Assembly (NCBI GenBank): GCA_024742735.1
Contig: JANSXV010000001.1
Coordinates: forward strand, 496,001 to 560,000
DNA from: Alphaproteobacteria bacterium
GTDB lineage: Bacteria > Pseudomonadota > Alphaproteobacteria > Caulobacterales > Maricaulaceae
Direction: 5' to 3'
Length of the DNA stretch: 64,000 nt
Shown: positions 41,385-45,684 of the stretch, one piece after another
Layout of the letters: each line of letters begins with the position of its first letter
Position numbering within the stretch: the first letter of the stretch is position 1
Program-made: the position numbers and the translations under genes
The notes under the pieces: generated by a model
What the model was told of the DNA's origin: nothing
Databases searched by the model: none
Seen by the model: only the letters and a program-made list of their open reading frames with translations

Positions 41385-42680
41385 ATGATTTCCAGGCGGC
41401 TCTTTCGGCGTATCGCCCTCCTTCTTGCGCTGTCGCTGGCCATGCTGACCGGCTTCGCCAGCGCATGCACGCCCGTGCGCCACGTGCTGGTCACCGCCGA
41501 TCCGCTCGCCCTCGGTCCGCCGGCCCGGCCGGACCTGTTCGCGTCCCTGCCCGAGCCCCCTCAAGCGCGCCTTCAGGCGTGGCGCGAGCGGCGCCCAGAC
41601 CTGCTGGCGCAGCTTTCGACCCACATCTATGGCGCATCTCCACCTGATCCCGGGCCGGTGACGCTTTCGGCATGGTCCGAGGTCTCCGCCTCGACCGAGC
41701 CGGGCGACCGCTTCATCGCTGACGCCACCATACCGGTCGACGGCGCCGGACCGCTCACGCTGCAGCTTGCACTGGTCATGCCGGCGCCGGACCGGCCGGT
41801 GCGCGGCGTCCTCCTCGTTCCCAGCGAATGCGGGCTCCAGGCCGCGCTCCATGACCCGGCCATGCCCGCACCGGACGGCTTCACGCCGAGCTATTGCGAC
41901 GCGGACGGCTGGCTCGCCGATCTGATCGGACCCCTGTTCGGCGAATGGATTTCCGGACCGCCGGCGGCCCGGGTTCTGGACCATGGCTACGCCATCGCCG
42001 CCTGGCATGAGAGCGACATCGCACCGGATAGCGCCGCCCTCCACGACACCGCCCTCGGCGCCTTCGGGCTTGATCCCCGAGCCGAAGACCGGCCCGGCGT
42101 GATTTCCCTGTGGGCGTGGACGATCTCGCGCGTGATCGATGCGATCGAGGAAGACCCGCGCTTCGTCGATGCGCCCTTGATCGCCTATGGCCATTCAAGG
42201 CGGGGCAAGGCGGTTCTGCTGGCCGCCGCCCGTGACGAGCGCATCGCCGTCACCCTTTCCCACCAGTCCGGGACCGGGGGCGCAGCCCTGCAGAATGACC
42301 GCGTCGGCGAGCCCGTCGCCTCCATAGTGGAGACCTATCCGCACTGGTTCGCGCCCCGCTATGGCGACTATGCCGATGGCAGGGCCGAGCTTCCGATCGA
42401 TCAGCATGTCCTGCTGGCCCTAATCGCCCCGCGCGCGGTGCTGATCGGGGCGGCCTGGCGCGATGTCTGGGCTGACCCCGCCGGCGCTTTCCGGGCAGCG
42501 GAGGCGGCGAGCCCCGCCTGGGCGATCTTCAACAGGCCTGGCCTTATCCAGAACCGCATGGCGGAGTTCGATCCGTCAGGCGGCGTCGCCAGCCACATCC
42601 GGCCTGGAACCCACGGCGTCACAGACACCGACTGGGACGCTTTCCTGGCGTTCATGGATGCCCATACGGTCGCGCCGTAA
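41385..42680 (+). CDS. CE15-like (glucuronoyl esterase family) secreted alpha/beta hydrolase
   Basis: A 431-residue secreted hydrolase. The N-terminal signal peptide (RIALLLALSLAMLTGFASA) is followed by Cys, but the residue at -3 is not typical of a lipobox. The nucleophile motif is AYGHSRRGKAVLLAAARDER (Ser271), followed by LSHQSGTGGAAL and HWFAPRYGDY, then DQHVLLALIAPRAVLIG, and the catalytic His410 in THGVTDTDWDAF. This order is that of bacterial CE15 glucuronoyl esterases, which cleave lignin-glucuronoyl esters; the true substrate in this organism is not known. A TTG two codons upstream is a less likely start. Monocistronic. Confidence 0.8.
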   Translation: MISRRLFRRIALLLALSLAMLTGFASACTPVRHVLVTADPLALGPPARPDLFASLPEPPQARLQAWRERRPDLLAQLSTHIYGASPPDPGPVTLSAWSEVSASTEPGDRFIADATIPVDGAGPLTLQLALVMPAPDRPVRGVLLVPSECGLQAALHDPAMPAPDGFTPSYCDADGWLADLIGPLFGEWISGPPAARVLDHGYAIAAWHESDIAPDSAALHDTALGAFGLDPRAEDRPGVISLWAWTISRVIDAIEEDPRFVDAPLIAYGHSRRGKAVLLAAARDERIAVTLSHQSGTGGAALQNDRVGEPVASIVETYPHWFAPRYGDYADGRAELPIDQHVLLALIAPRAVLIGAAWRDVWADPAGAFRAAEAASPAWAIFNRPGLIQNRMAEFDPSGGVASHIRPGTHGVTDTDWDAFLAFMDAHTVAP

Positions 42681-42755
42681 GCCGGCGCCCCCCGGATCGA
42701 TTTCTTAGCCTGGCGGCGAACCGGTTCCTTGGCCCCTGCCGGGGCATTCTCACCT

Positions 42756-42780
42756 CGAAACAGTCCCCCGGACTGTTTCG
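42756..42780. repeat. REP-like extragenic palindrome downstream of tRNA-Val
   Basis: Perfect 11-bp arms CGAAACAGTCC (42756-42766) and GGACTGTTTCG (42770-42780) around CCC. It is followed by a second GC palindrome (GCCGG-CTTCG-CCGG, about 42781-42794). It has no T-run, so it may be an extragenic repeat that also ends pheA/tRNA-Val transcripts rather than a standard terminator. Confidence 0.5.
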
Positions 42781-42805
42781 GCCGGCTTCGCCGGACCGGC
42801 TCGAA

Positions 42806-42881
42806 TGGTGGGCGGTGACGGGGTCGAACCGCCGACCTACTGGGTGTAAACCAGTTGCTCTACCAGCTGAGCTAACCGCCC
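42806..42881 (-). tRNA. tRNA-Val (TAC)
   Basis: A 76-base cloverleaf on the minus strand with encoded CCA. Acceptor GGGCGGT pairs with ACCGCCC, anticodon stem ACTGG/CCAGT, loop TTTACAC giving anticodon TAC, T arm GGCGG-TTCGACC-CCGTC. The 5' end is only 11 bases downstream of the pheA stop codon with no room for a promoter, so it is either read through from pheA or transcribed from a promoter inside pheA. Confidence 0.97.
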
Positions 42882-42892
42882 TTCCCGTCCGT

Positions 42893-44056
42893 TTAAGCCT
42901 CTCGCGCCGCCGGCTTCAAGCGGTCTGAACCGTAGGAGCCGAGACGCCGGACGGATTTCGCCGTGCCTTCCAGATGCTTCAGCGCTCGGGCGATACCGTC
43001 GTCTTCCTCGTGGCCTTCAAGGTCGAGGAAGAAGAGCTGCTCCCACGGCGCACCGGGCACAGGACGGCTTTCAAGCTTGGTGAGGTTCACGCCCTCATTG
43101 CGGAAGCCGTCGAGCGCCGTCATCAGCGAGCCGGCCTCATCCGCCGTAACGAAGACCAGCGAGGTCTTGCACGGGAGAAGCGGGCTGGCCGGCGCCGGAT
43201 CCATGGCCAGCGCGACGAAGCGCGTTTCGTTGCCGACCAGGTCTGAAATGCTCGGCTCGATGATGTTCAGACCAAACAGACCGCCAGCTTCCGGACCGGC
43301 CACCGCGGCGGCCGTCGGGCCTTCGTCCAGCGCGCGCTCGAGCGCGCGCGTGGTCGAGGAAACCGGAACCTTGCGGATGTCGGATCGGCCGCCGAGCCAG
43401 TTCTGCGCCTGGCGCAGGGCCTGGGCGTGGCCGTAGATTGTGCGCACCGCGCCGATATCGGTCGCCTTGCCCAGCAGCGCGTGCTCGATGCGCTGATGGT
43501 GTTCCCCGGCGATCTTCAGCCGGGTTTCGCGCAGCAGGTCATAGACCTCCACGATGCCGCCGGTCGCTGTGTTCTCGATGGGCAGAAAGCCGTAATCGGC
43601 GGAGCCGGCCTCGACGGCCCGGAAGACCGAGGCGTAATCGCGCTCGATGACCGGAACGACCCCGGAATAGCGGCCGGAAAAGTGATTATGGGCGGCGAAG
43701 TGGGAGTAGCTGCCCGGCCCGCCCAGGTACGCCACGCGCGCCTCGGTCAGCATGCGGTCGCCAGCGCGGGCGTCCAGGCCGGCGCGCTGGCGCCGCAGGG
43801 AATCATCGATGATCAGCTGAAACAGGCCTTCCACGAACTTCGCGTCCAGACCCAGCGTTTCACCGGCCGCGATGGCGCGGTCGATGACGGCGCGTTCGCG
43901 TTCCACATCGCGCACGGGGCTGACTTCGCCGGCCTTCAGCGCGCCAAGCGCTTCGCCGAGGCGTCGGCGGTCTGCAAGCAGGCGAAGGATCTCCCGGTCC
44001 ACCGTATCGATGGAAGCGCGTAGCGCGGCGCGGTCATTGCGGTCTGTAGCGGTCAT
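42893..44056 (-). CDS. pheA: Chorismate mutase/prephenate dehydratase
   Basis: A 387-residue bifunctional P-protein for Phe synthesis: chorismate to prephenate to phenylpyruvate. Chorismate mutase (AroQ) domain at 1-95 (LRASIDTVDREILRLLADRR), prephenate dehydratase at about 105-290 (AYLGGPGSYSHFAA, LPIENTATGGIVE, and the catalytic TRF in VGNETRFVAL near 277), then an ACT domain whose ESRP motif binds Phe for feedback inhibition. An attenuator with a Phe-rich leader peptide lies directly upstream; tRNA-Val follows 11 bases after the stop. Confidence 0.96.
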   Translation of the reverse strand: MTATDRNDRAALRASIDTVDREILRLLADRRRLGEALGALKAGEVSPVRDVERERAVIDRAIAAGETLGLDAKFVEGLFQLIIDDSLRRQRAGLDARAGDRMLTEARVAYLGGPGSYSHFAAHNHFSGRYSGVVPVIERDYASVFRAVEAGSADYGFLPIENTATGGIVEVYDLLRETRLKIAGEHHQRIEHALLGKATDIGAVRTIYGHAQALRQAQNWLGGRSDIRKVPVSSTTRALERALDEGPTAAAVAGPEAGGLFGLNIIEPSISDLVGNETRFVALAMDPAPASPLLPCKTSLVFVTADEAGSLMTALDGFRNEGVNLTKLESRPVPGAPWEQLFFLDLEGHEEDDGIARALKHLEGTAKSVRRLGSYGSDRLKPAAREA

Positions 44057-44080
44057 GGGCCTGCCTTAAAACCATCCTCA

Positions 44081-44112
44081 AAAACGAAAACCCCCGCCGG
44101 TCAGGGCGGGGG
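44081..44112 (-). terminator. Intrinsic terminator of the pheA attenuator
   Basis: Minus-strand stem CCCCCGCC (44112-44105), 6-base loop, GGCGGGGG (44098-44091), then TTTTCGTTTT. It ends 25 bases before the pheA ATG. Confidence 0.85.
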
Positions 44113-44141
44113 CGGACTGAAACGCGCTGGCGCACGCCGGT

Positions 44142-44198
44142 TCAGCCGGACCCCCGCGGGCCGGTGAAATAGAAGCTGAACTGATAGCGCGTTTCCAT
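44142..44198 (-). CDS. pheL: Putative Phe-rich leader peptide (PheL-like), apparently leaderless
   Basis: ATG at 44198, stop TGA at 44144-44142, 18 residues: METRYQFSFYFTGPRGSG. Phe at 7, 9, 11 and Tyr at 5, 10. No ribosome-binding site precedes the ATG, but a promoter (TTGACC, 18 bases, CATGCT) places the start of transcription at or within a base or two of the ATG, so the message is probably leaderless, as described for trpL of Sinorhizobium. An in-frame ATG at 44210 falls inside the -10 box. Confidence 0.6.
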   Translation of the reverse strand: METRYQFSFYFTGPRGSG

Positions 44199-44205
44199 GC
44201 GCAGG

Positions 44206-44235
44206 AGCATGGCCGCATCGAACTTGTCCGGTCAA
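44206..44235 (-). promoter_or_regulatory. Promoter of pheL-pheA
   Basis: Minus strand TTGACC (44235-44230), 18-base spacer, CATGCT (44211-44206); predicted start 44199-44198, coinciding with the leader-peptide ATG. The -35 box is strong and the -10 box weak. Confidence 0.5.
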
Positions 44236-44302
44236 GCGCTGGATTGACGCGATGGCTGCGGCGCTGTCCGATATCGTTGCCAATCATCACGAAGGTCCGG
44301 CC

Positions 44303-44926
44303 ATGATCCGTTTCACCGCTCTCTCGCTGACCGCAACCCTGCTCGTCGCCTGCTCCGCCACCAGCGATGCGCCGGACGCACCGCCACGGGCGATCATCGA
44401 AACCAGCGCCGGGTCAATTACGGTGGAGCTGGCCGAAGACGCGGCCCCGATCACGGTCGCGAACTTCATCGCCCACGCTGAAGCCGGCCATTTCAATGGC
44501 GGGTCCTTCTACCGCTCGGTCCGCGACGACAATGAGCGTGAGGGTGTGGACCCCATGAACCTCATTCAGGGCGGCTATGGCTTTGACGGCCTGCCTGGGG
44601 CTGAAGGCATCGAACATGAGCCCACGACCGCGACCGGGCTTACCCACCGGCGCGGCGCGATCTCCATGGGCCGATTTGAGGTCGGCACGGCCGCCACCGA
44701 ATTCTTCATCATGGTCAATGACTATCCCGGCCTGGACGCCGGCCCCGGCACGCGCAATCCCGACGAGGCCGGCTACGCCGTCTTCGGTCAGGTGATCGAA
44801 GGCATGGACGTGGTCGAGGACATCTGGATGCGCGAGACGAGCCCGGAACCGGCGCCGGACGATTTCCAGTATCCCCAGTTCATGGTCGAGCCGGTGACCA
44901 TCGTGTCGGTGCGGATCGAGGATTAG
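44303..44926 (+). CDS. Cyclophilin-type peptidyl-prolyl isomerase, lipoprotein
   Basis: A 207-residue protein. Lipoprotein signal peptide ending LLVACS, then a cyclophilin domain: IIETSAGSITVELAEDAAPITVANF, FYRSV, LIQGGYGFDG, GAISMGR, EFFIMVND and YAVFGQVIEGMDVVE. It speeds up proline isomerisation of exported proteins, probably anchored to an envelope membrane. The ATG at 44303 is chosen because it starts a proper signal peptide; the in-frame start at 44252 does not. It is divergent from the pheL-pheA unit. Confidence 0.88.
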   Translation: MIRFTALSLTATLLVACSATSDAPDAPPRAIIETSAGSITVELAEDAAPITVANFIAHAEAGHFNGGSFYRSVRDDNEREGVDPMNLIQGGYGFDGLPGAEGIEHEPTTATGLTHRRGAISMGRFEVGTAATEFFIMVNDYPGLDAGPGTRNPDEAGYAVFGQVIEGMDVVEDIWMRETSPEPAPDDFQYPQFMVEPVTIVSVRIED

Positions 44927-45684
44927 AGCGCGCCAAAGACGTCCCGCGTCAGGCGCGGATCGAAATGCTGGCCGCCGTCCACACAGACGATCTGGCCGGA
45001 GACCGGCGCGGAATCCCTGAAGAAGCGCAAGGCCCGCACCAGATCATCCGTGGTCGGTCCTGCGCCCAGCGGATTGTCATGGTGCAGCCGCTCAAACTCC
45101 TCCTTGGAGTGATAGGGGCTCGGCAGCGTCAGACCTGGCGCAATGCCGCAGACTCGGACCCTGGGGGCGAGGTCACGGGCCAGCATCTCGGTCATGGCCT
45201 TCAGCCCCGCCTTGGACAGGGTGTAGGAGAAATAGTCCGCGTTGATGTTGAAAAGCTTGTAGTCCAGCAGGTTCACGATCAGCGATCCCTGCGGCGCCTG
45301 GGCGGCGAACGCCTTGGACAGAAGCGCCGGCGCCAACAGGTTGGCGCCCATGTGACGGTGGAAGCTGTCGGCCGTGATAGTGTCCGGGCGGTCGTCTTCA
45401 AAGATCGAGGCTGAGTTCACCAGCAGCGATATCGGGCCGAGGGTCTGCGCTGCGCGCCCGATCAACGCTTCAGCCGCCGCCGGGTCCGACAGGTCCGCGC
45501 CGACCGCGCAGGCTGCGCCGCCCGCGGTGATGATCTGCTCAACGAGCGCATCCGCCTCTTTTGAGGAGGTGTTGTAGTGCACAGCGCACGGGTGACCGTC
45601 TTCGGCCAACGCCTCGATGAAGGCCCGGCCCACGCGTTTGGCGCCGCCGGTCACCAGAACCGCTCCACGCTCCGATTCAGACAT
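44923..45684 (-). CDS. SDR oxidoreductase, pteridine-reductase (FolM/PTR1) type
   Basis: A 253-residue short-chain dehydrogenase. The cofactor motif is TGGAKRVG, the TGX3RXG form that marks pteridine reductases and FolM rather than the usual TGxxxGxG. The catalytic YTLSK is present, as is NSASIFEDD (the NNAS-like motif). Divergent from folB with 97 bases between. FolM-like enzymes reduce dihydromonapterin or dihydrofolate using NADPH. ATG 45684 is preferred over an in-frame start at 45705. It overlaps the cyclophilin gene tail to tail by 4 bp. Confidence 0.8.
   Translation of the reverse strand: MSESERGAVLVTGGAKRVGRAFIEALAEDGHPCAVHYNTSSKEADALVEQIITAGGAACAVGADLSDPAAAEALIGRAAQTLGPISLLVNSASIFEDDRPDTITADSFHRHMGANLLAPALLSKAFAAQAPQGSLIVNLLDYKLFNINADYFSYTLSKAGLKAMTEMLARDLAPRVRVCGIAPGLTLPSPYHSKEEFERLHHDNPLGAGPTTDDLVRALRFFRDSAPVSGQIVCVDGGQHFDPRLTRDVFGAL

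What the first reader, a model, noticed from the sequence alone, without database searches (positions are those of the whole stretch)
44078..44235. A Phe attenuator with an apparently leaderless leader peptide in front of pheA
The sequence shows, in order on the minus strand: a promoter whose predicted start falls on an ATG; an 18-residue ORF with Phe at 7, 9, 11 and Tyr at 5, 10; a GCGGGGG segment that can pair with the 5' arm of the next stem; and a perfect terminator with T-runs 25 bases before pheA. The known precedents are enteric pheL attenuators and the leaderless trpL of Sinorhizobium. The inference is ribosome-stalling control of pheA by Phe-tRNA. Because the ORF is leaderless, initiation would be by 70S ribosomes.
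Basis: partly seen in the sequence, partly recalled or inferred. Interest (0 to 1): 0.8.

Follow-up and report, generated by a model that had tools for sequence, protein, structure and literature searches.

The report
Leaderless Phe/Tyr attenuator before pheA
In front of a gene for making phenylalanine sits a tiny reading frame rich in phenylalanine and tyrosine codons, apparently starting at the very first base of the RNA and followed by two competing RNA folds, which probably lets this marine bacterium switch the gene on only when these amino acids run short.

Summary
Minus strand: TTGACC (44235-44230), 18 nt, CATGCT, 7 nt, ATG (44198), an 18-codon ORF (3 Phe, 2 Tyr), a terminator (44113-44090, T-rich tail), then bifunctional pheA (44056). 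It is not chance: 46 of 51 family genomes with bifunctional pheA have the unit, each with an ATG 35-37 nt after the first T of TTGAC[CG]; 45 of 46 fit TTGAC[CG]-N17/18-CANNNT-N6/7-ATG. None of 48 monofunctional pheA loci tested has an F/Y-rich leader. So the leaderless call is strong, though no 5' end was mapped. Nascent-chain folding shows the expected switch, as for E. coli pheL, trpL and hisL; full-length equilibrium folding favours the terminator, and formal covariation is weak.

New point: Tyr codons occur in 45 of 46 leaders, with the same shift to U-ending codons as Phe. The window genome and 28 other leader genomes lack a convincing TyrA but have phenylalanine hydroxylase, so PheA would feed both amino acids. 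The only Tyr-free leader (G004) is in a genome with a TyrA-like protein and no hydroxylase found; 16 of 16 pheA leaders outside the class, all with TyrA, lack Tyr. But 16 genomes with a TyrA-like protein keep Tyr codons. Dual Phe/Tyr sensing is plausible, unproven.

The parts
44230..44235 (-). -35 element TTGACC
   Evidence: TTGAC[CG] 35-37 nt before an ATG in 46 of 46 leader genomes
44206..44211 (-). -10 element CATGCT, spacer 18, 7 nt before the ATG
   Evidence: CANNNT with spacer 17/18 and 6/7 nt to the ATG in 45 of 46 leader genomes; not found by the strict sigma-70 scan
44142..44198 (-). Leader ORF METRYQFSFYFTGPRGSG*, predicted leaderless; putative control codons Y5 F7 F9 Y10 F11
   Evidence: F/Y-rich short ORF in 46 of 51 bifunctional-pheA genomes
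44150..44157 (-). Region 2: GCGGGGGT inside the last leader codons, 5' arm of the antiterminator
   Evidence: Fold
44141..44147 (-). GGCTGAA over the stop codon, pairs with TTCAGTC (44121-44115) inside the antiterminator hairpin
   Evidence: Fold (-35.8 kcal/mol for the whole antiterminator stretch)
44105..44113 (-). Region 3: GCCCCCGCC, shared by antiterminator and terminator
44090..44098 (-). Region 4: GGCGGGGGT, 3' arm of the intrinsic terminator
44080..44089 (-). T-rich tail TTTCGTTTTT
42893..44056 (-). pheA, bifunctional chorismate mutase-prephenate dehydratase, 387 aa
   Evidence: Pfam PF01817 and PF00800 over cut-off, ACT (PF01842) below it; best NCBIfam model NF007910, bifunctional chorismate mutase/prephenate dehydratase, 300.6 bits, below its cut-off of 577

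Best explanation
This is a ribosome-mediated transcription attenuator of pheA in an Oceanicaulis-group alphaproteobacterium. Transcription starts at or next to the A of the leader ATG, so the leader ORF is leaderless and a ribosome loads on the bare 5' end (inferred from promoter geometry). When charged Phe-tRNA (and probably Tyr-tRNA) is scarce, the ribosome stalls on the F/Y codons; region 2, in the last codons, is then free to pair with region 3 in a long hairpin that spans the stop codon, and RNA polymerase reads on into pheA. When both are plentiful the ribosome reaches the stop codon, covers region 2, and region 3 pairs with region 4 as an intrinsic terminator. Shown: anatomy, its conservation, and nascent-chain folding that behaves like E. 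coli leaders. Inferred: start site, translation, stalling and regulation. More tentative: the Tyr codons are true control codons, because where no TyrA is found the only evident route to Tyr is PheA plus phenylalanine hydroxylase.
For: 46 of 51 bifunctional-pheA genomes, in 8 genera, carry promoter, F/Y-rich ORF, terminator and pheA in this order. 45 of 46 fit TTGAC[CG]-N17/18-CANNNT-N6/7-ATG. A short ATG ORF with at least 4 F+Y lies within 450 nt upstream in 40 of 51 bifunctional loci, 0 of 19 monofunctional loci of the family and 0 of 29 from the class. Mean F+Y fraction is 0.25 in leaders against 0.03 in 289 window ORFs of like length. Region 3 pairs with the end of the ORF, enclosing the stop codon, in 45 of 46 minimum-energy folds. 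With region 4 not yet made, region 3 is more sequestered with the ribosome at its best F/Y codon than at the stop in 46 of 46 (median +0.30; window 0.96-0.66 over its five F/Y codons against 0.23; E. coli pheL 0.88/0.22, trpL 0.62/0.10, hisL 0.60/0.07). Phe and Tyr codons shift to TTT and TAT compared with pheA of the same 26 genomes (odds 3.7 and 5.5) although other leader codons have GC3 0.86. TyrA/hydroxylase pattern.
Against: No 5' end, ribosome profile or expression data. Equilibrium folding of the full leader favours the terminator even with a stalled ribosome; the change exceeds 0.5 in 8 of 46. In the nascent-chain model the best codon of several is compared with one stop position, which leans towards an increase; the gain exceeds 0.3 in 22 of 46 and 0.5 in 7. 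Region 2 swapped between genera: self pairing beats the cross-genus mean in 23 of 46 and clearly in only one g13 genome, G077. Antiterminator z-scores average -1.42, range -4.22 to 0.92, 22 of 46 below -2, window -2.62. Formal covariation in g1 is weak. G024, G026, G027 and G087 lack the unit; G025 is cut by its contig end. Four g1 leaders have a single Phe codon. Against dual sensing: 16 g13 genomes have a TyrA-like protein and keep Tyr codons.
Confidence: 0.85

Rival explanations
1. A leaderless attenuator that senses Phe alone; Tyr codons are incidental neighbours or serve only to keep the 5' region AU-rich and unstructured.
For: Phe outnumbers Tyr (3.11 against 2.09 per leader). 16 g13 genomes with a TyrA-like protein keep Tyr codons. 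TTT to TAT is one substitution.
Against: Tyr in 45 of 46 leaders against 13% of 289 background ORFs; Tyr codons show the same U-ending shift as Phe; the only Tyr-free leader (G004) is in a genome with a TyrA-like protein and no hydroxylase found, while its congener G003 (no TyrA, hydroxylase) has three Tyr; 16 of 16 pheA leaders outside the class, all with TyrA, have no Tyr, 7 of them with hydroxylase. Independent contrasts are few.
Confidence: 0.45
2. The attenuator is real but not leaderless: transcription starts further upstream and the ORF has a short 5' UTR, possibly using the in-frame ATG at 44210.
For: The strict promoter scan finds no sigma-70 promoter here; the window has an in-frame ATG 12 nt upstream.
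Against: That ATG lies in the -10 hexamer and is not in that hexamer in genera g4, g6, g13, g14, g15 and g19. The spacing from TTGAC to the ATG is held at 35-37 nt in 46 of 46 and the -10 fit in 45 of 46. In the window the ORF upstream (44252-44926) runs the other way.
Confidence: 0.1
3. Besides or instead of cis control, the terminated leader RNA or its peptide acts in trans, as reported for rnTrpL/peTrpL of Sinorhizobium meliloti.
For: Same architecture (leaderless ORF plus terminator would give a small leaderless mRNA); trans roles are described in PMC7298713 (passages). 15 of 19 g13 peptides end in GAVAG, beyond the F/Y codons.
Against: The nucleotides of that tail are region 2, which can explain its conservation; tails differ between genera. 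No target was sought.
Confidence: 0.1
4. A constitutive early terminator with a non-functional ORF.
For: Full-length equilibrium folds favour the terminator in nearly all states and genomes.
Against: Codon content, codon bias, fixed promoter-ATG spacing and restriction to bifunctional pheA among the loci tested.
Confidence: 0.04

Closest known systems
Enterobacterial pheL attenuator (Rfam Phe_leader, RF01859)
   Same: Phe-rich leader ORF, antiterminator/terminator switch, same target (chorismate mutase-prephenate dehydratase gene); nascent-chain folding behaves alike
   Different: No match in window 42500-45500 at E up to 5 or in the window genome at E up to 0.01; Tyr codons present; predicted leaderless; in the window region 3 is sequestered 0.95 without a ribosome, against 0.22 for E. 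coli pheL
Leaderless trpL / rnTrpL attenuator of Sinorhizobium meliloti
   Same: Alphaproteobacterial attenuator whose leader RNA starts with the ATG of the leader ORF (PMC7298713 and PMC10117765, passages)
   Different: Trp codon and trpE target; there start and translation are reported from experiment, here only predicted
Leaderless polycysteine short ORFs of mycobacteria
   Same: Leaderless short ORFs acting as amino-acid-responsive attenuators (title seen in a reference list; paper not read)
   Different: Other amino acid and phylum
ilvBNC attenuator of Corynebacterium glutamicum
   Same: Leader peptide attenuator discussed in terms of leaderless initiation (PMC11857589, passages)
   Different: Branched-chain amino acids, other phylum
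ilv leader attenuation in Caulobacter crescentus
   Same: Leader ORF attenuation in an alphaproteobacterium (PMC4117421, passages)
   Different: Ile/Val codons; 'pheA' does not occur in that main text
Other predicted pheA-linked leaders in print
   Same: A candidate RNA motif named pheA in Actinobacteria (a table row in PMC2864571) and a predicted attenuator before a Bordetella parapertussis operon with aroQ-pheA and tyrA (a table row in PMC1173090)
   Different: Other taxa; only those rows were seen, no structures compared

Membership tests
Ribosome-mediated amino acid attenuator | Short leader ORF rich in codons of the pathway's product | tested here: met
   46 of 51 bifunctional-pheA genomes; mean F+Y fraction 0.25
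Ribosome-mediated amino acid attenuator | Intrinsic terminator between leader ORF and structural gene | tested here: met
   46 of 46 leader genomes, hairpin plus at least 4 T in 8
Ribosome-mediated amino acid attenuator | Mutually exclusive antiterminator that a stalled ribosome permits and a ribosome at the stop blocks | tested here: met
   Nascent-chain model: some increase in 46 of 46, at least 0.15 on the best Phe stall in 40 of 46, above 0.3 in 22 of 46; not seen in most genomes at full-length equilibrium
Ribosome-mediated amino acid attenuator | Covarying antiterminator pairs | tested here: inconclusive
   Weak in g1; swap test fails in g13
Ribosome-mediated amino acid attenuator | Readthrough rises on limitation of the amino acid | not testable with these tools
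   Needs a reporter assay
Rfam Phe_leader RF01859 | Covariance model score over the gathering threshold | tested here: not met
   No match
Leaderless mRNA | 5' end at the start codon | not testable with these tools
   Geometry predicts it; no RNA data
Leaderless mRNA | -10 element 6-7 nt before the ATG, leaving no room for a Shine-Dalgarno site | tested here: met
   45 of 46 leader genomes; not G004
Dual Phe/Tyr attenuator (proposed) | Tyr codons present where PheA supplies Tyr and absent where it does not | tested here: inconclusive
   Fits G003/G004, the TyrA-less genomes and 16 leaders outside the class; 16 g13 genomes with a TyrA-like protein keep Tyr

The most novel reading that the evidence does not exclude
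In relatives of the window that lost prephenate dehydrogenase, tyrosine is made from phenylalanine by hydroxylation, and the pheA attenuator became a leaderless sensor of both Phe-tRNA and Tyr-tRNA. In the window it lacks an effective protector hairpin, so a leader without a ribosome defaults to readthrough, unlike the three E. coli leaders tested.
Probability: 0.4. Interest if true: 0.68.

Novelty: new variant of a known kind. Interest (0 to 1): 0.55.

Why it matters
It gives a predicted leaderless attenuator whose promoter-to-start-codon spacing is held fixed across 46 genomes, a natural series for asking how initiation at a bare 5' end is coupled to attenuation. The Tyr codons suggest that a leader peptide can record how a pathway is wired: where Phe is the precursor of Tyr, the leader reads both. 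The G003/G004 pair and the TyrA-less genomes make that directly testable.

Tried and rejected
Rfam matches in the region: the CRISPR-DR9 match on the plus strand (44087-44123, 29.2 bits against a gathering score of 45) lies on the terminator hairpin and was rejected; anti-hemB (16.1 bits) likewise; no Phe_leader match.

Equilibrium folding of the complete leader with ribosome masks: terminator favoured almost everywhere; I then used a nascent-chain model with E. coli controls. The first result stands as evidence against a purely thermodynamic switch.

Region 2/region 3 swap between genera as a coevolution test: supportive in most genomes outside g13, fails in g13; not used as proof. Formal pair counts: antiterminator in g1 weak; terminator in g1 97.2% of cells paired, one pair with changes on both sides; the upstream hairpin in g13 78.5% paired, three such pairs.

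Other leaders in the genus: within 450 nt of 14 trpE loci the best short ORFs have two Trp, and within 450 nt of 24 acetolactate-synthase-type loci some short ORFs are rich in Ile/Leu/Val, but none has TTGAC 30-40 nt before its ATG. The recurring MAWLQPGAN ORF upstream of ilvB reads like the end of ilvC (my reading). I saw no leader before phhA in the three loci printed (by eye).

Wider distribution: no bifunctional PheA in one open frame was seen outside the window's family in the order search (299 genomes, 293 with a match) or the class sample (385 genomes, 300 with a match), judged by query coverage in the listed rows; both lists are cut. Five listed rows reach further upstream than query residue 60 (G167, G182, G492, G593, G708) but cross stop codons.

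Literature: searches of the open-access library listed no paper on a pheA attenuator in this order or on Tyr codons in a pheA leader; long lists were cut at 20 rows, and most subscription papers are not held. PMC2965389 (passages) does not mention phenylalanine. Vitreschak et al. 2004, a proteobacterial survey of attenuators, was seen only as a reference.

Full report
What is there. Reading the minus strand: TTGACC at 44235-44230, 18 nt, CATGCT at 44211-44206, 7 nt, ATG at 44198. The ORF METRYQFSFYFTGPRGSG ends with TGA at 44144-44142. GCGGGGG (44157-44151), inside the last codons, is complementary to the 5' arm of a 9-pair terminator (44113-44090) with a T-rich tail. pheA starts at 44056. Its product has chorismate mutase and prephenate dehydratase domains over the Pfam cut-offs and a weak ACT match; the best NCBIfam model is the bifunctional enzyme, below that model's cut-off. 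The taxon comes from one record: the pheA contig of G087, listed in the same genus as the window, agrees in length and position with a record titled Oceanicaulis sp. BBD 1991-10; NCBI places Oceanicaulis in Maricaulaceae.

Is it more than chance? In the 64-kb window, both strands, TTGAC[CG] with an ATG at 35-37 nt occurs twice; only this site opens a short ORF. Of 289 ATG ORFs of 15-26 aa in the window, 3 hold at least five F+Y and two of these are this ORF from its two in-frame ATGs. In the family search of 137 genomes, 130 matched PheA; 51 have the bifunctional form by query coverage (weak or fragment hits such as those of G029, G030 and G088 were not counted). I took the upstream DNA of all 51. 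46 have an F/Y-rich short ORF placed after TTGAC, and all 46 then have a hairpin with a T-run 20-36 nt after the stop codon. G024, G026, G027 and G087 lack the unit; G025's contig ends inside what looks like the ORF, so it counts among the five without. The script chose the ORF with most F+Y downstream of TTGAC, so 8 printed peptides start at a second in-frame ATG; an ATG at 35-37 nt exists in all 46. A relaxed test that ignores the promoter (a short ATG ORF with at least 4 F+Y within 450 nt) gives 40 of 51 bifunctional loci, 0 of 19 monofunctional loci of the same family and 0 of 29 from the rest of the class; the 19 and 29 are those fetched, not all that exist.

Leaderless. In 45 of 46 the ATG follows CANNNT by 6 or 7 nt with a 17- or 18-nt spacer after TTGAC[CG]; G004 has no such hexamer. 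A start at or beside the A of the ATG follows from usual sigma-70 geometry (established knowledge), and there is no room for a Shine-Dalgarno site. The in-frame ATG at 44210 lies in the -10 hexamer. The strict promoter scan found none here. No transcript was mapped.

Switch. From the last F/Y codon to the end of region 3, the minimum-energy fold pairs region 3 with the end of the ORF around the stop codon in 45 of 46 genomes; in G028 the last Phe lies in the tail, so region 2 is cut off and the test does not apply. With the chain ended just after region 3, region 3 is more sequestered with the ribosome at its best F/Y codon than at the stop in 46 of 46, median gain 0.30; the gain is at least 0.15 for the best Phe stall in 40 of 46 and the best Tyr stall in 39 of 45 (10-nt downstream footprint), and above 0.3 in 22 of 46. 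Taking the best codon leans towards a gain. In the window the values are 0.96, 0.95, 0.89, 0.89 and 0.66 for codons 5, 7, 9, 10 and 11, and 0.23 at the stop. E. coli pheL, trpL and hisL under the same code give 0.88/0.22, 0.62/0.10 and 0.60/0.07 (sequences). Without a ribosome the E. coli leaders leave region 3 mostly free (0.22, 0.30, 0.07), whereas the window gives 0.95 and the family median is 0.73: a possible difference in default state. In g13 a hairpin upstream of region 2, overlapping the last control codons, is predicted, closer to a classic protector.

Evidence that falls short. The full-length leader at equilibrium prefers the terminator with or without stalling; a change above 0.5 appears in 8 of 46. 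Antiterminator z-scores against shuffles average -1.42 (range -4.22 to 0.92), window -2.62, 22 of 46 below -2; swapping region 2 between genera leaves self pairing better than the cross-genus mean in 23 of 46. Formal covariation of the g1 antiterminator is weak, 59.8% of cells paired against 58.1% in shuffles; the g1 terminator is 97.2% paired. G-runs and C-runs pair generically, so these tests have little power.

Phe and Tyr. Leaders carry 3.11 Phe and 2.09 Tyr on average; Tyr is in 45 of 46. In the 26 leader genomes for which the script held pheA, Phe codons are TTT 44, TTC 34 in leaders against 90, 255 in pheA, and Tyr codons TAT 45, TAC 9 against 101, 112 (odds 3.7 and 5.5), while other leader codons have GC3 0.86 against 0.81. 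Related genomes are not independent, so the p-values there should not be taken at face value. Prephenate dehydrogenase (PF02153) has no match in the window genome, nor does the G004 TyrA-like protein. Of the 46 leader genomes, 17 have a strong PF02153 match (16 of g13 and G004), 28 have none over the cut-off, and G090 has one borderline match (26.6 bits, cut-off 26.5) not seen with the G004 protein. Some of the 28 are incomplete (G028 is 69% complete). Phenylalanine hydroxylase (PF00351) is found in 43 of 46, including all 29 without a strong TyrA; it was not found in G004 (100% complete) or in G068 and G080 (65% and 69% complete). The window genome's hydroxylase passes the NCBIfam cut-off for phenylalanine 4-monooxygenase. 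G004 has the only leader without Tyr (F3 Y0); its congener G003, without TyrA and with hydroxylase, has F2 Y3. As an outside control, Phe_leader matches over the cut-off were found in 18 of 329 phylum genomes, presumably Gammaproteobacteria (no names given). I took the best locus of each: by the downstream ORF (my reading), 16 precede pheA and 2 pheS. All 16 pheA leaders have 4-8 Phe and no Tyr; all 16 genomes have TyrA and 7 have hydroxylase. Against dual sensing, 16 g13 genomes have a TyrA-like protein, hydroxylase in 14 of them, and keep Tyr codons. The TyrA-like proteins tested fall below the NCBIfam cut-offs, so their function is not certain.

Place among known systems. It works like enteric pheL but is not a member of Rfam Phe_leader. 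Leaderless attenuators exist: trpL of S. meliloti, whose leader RNA begins with the ATG (PMC7298713 and PMC10117765, passages), and polycysteine ORFs of mycobacteria (title in a reference list). Caulobacter has ilv leader attenuation (PMC4117421, passages). So the kind is known; the pheA target with a leaderless start, the conserved Tyr codons and their link to the Tyr route are the variant. I found no paper describing this in the library searched (long lists were cut).

Noticed in passing
Window genome G000:C19:574162-574710 (L083); similar weak second matches in other genus g1 genomes: A second, shorter prephenate-dehydratase-like ORF, beside an ORF that reads like an aspartate aminotransferase; NF008865 E 2.7e-26 but below cut-off.
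   Followed up: partly
L001 / L007 (G087, Oceanicaulis sp. BBD 1991-10): A close relative whose pheA has no leader of this type upstream; three genomes of genus g8 (G024, G026, G027) lack it too.
   Followed up: partly
Family f1, genera g1 and g6 among others: No convincing prephenate dehydrogenase found but phenylalanine hydroxylase present, suggesting that tyrosine is made only from phenylalanine.
   Followed up: partly
L082, L087 and other genus g1 hydroxylases: The genus g1 hydroxylases match Biopterin_H in two separate stretches of one frame, unlike most other genera.
   Followed up: no
G004:C48:11685-12428, 16 g13 genomes and many g18 genomes: A short TyrA-like protein of about 250 aa, distinct from the longer TyrA of other genera, with a patchy distribution.
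   Followed up: partly
42809-42881 minus strand: A tRNA gene directly after pheA (Rfam tRNA).
   Followed up: no
44087-44123 plus strand: Sub-threshold Rfam CRISPR-DR9 match that lies on the terminator hairpin.
   Followed up: yes
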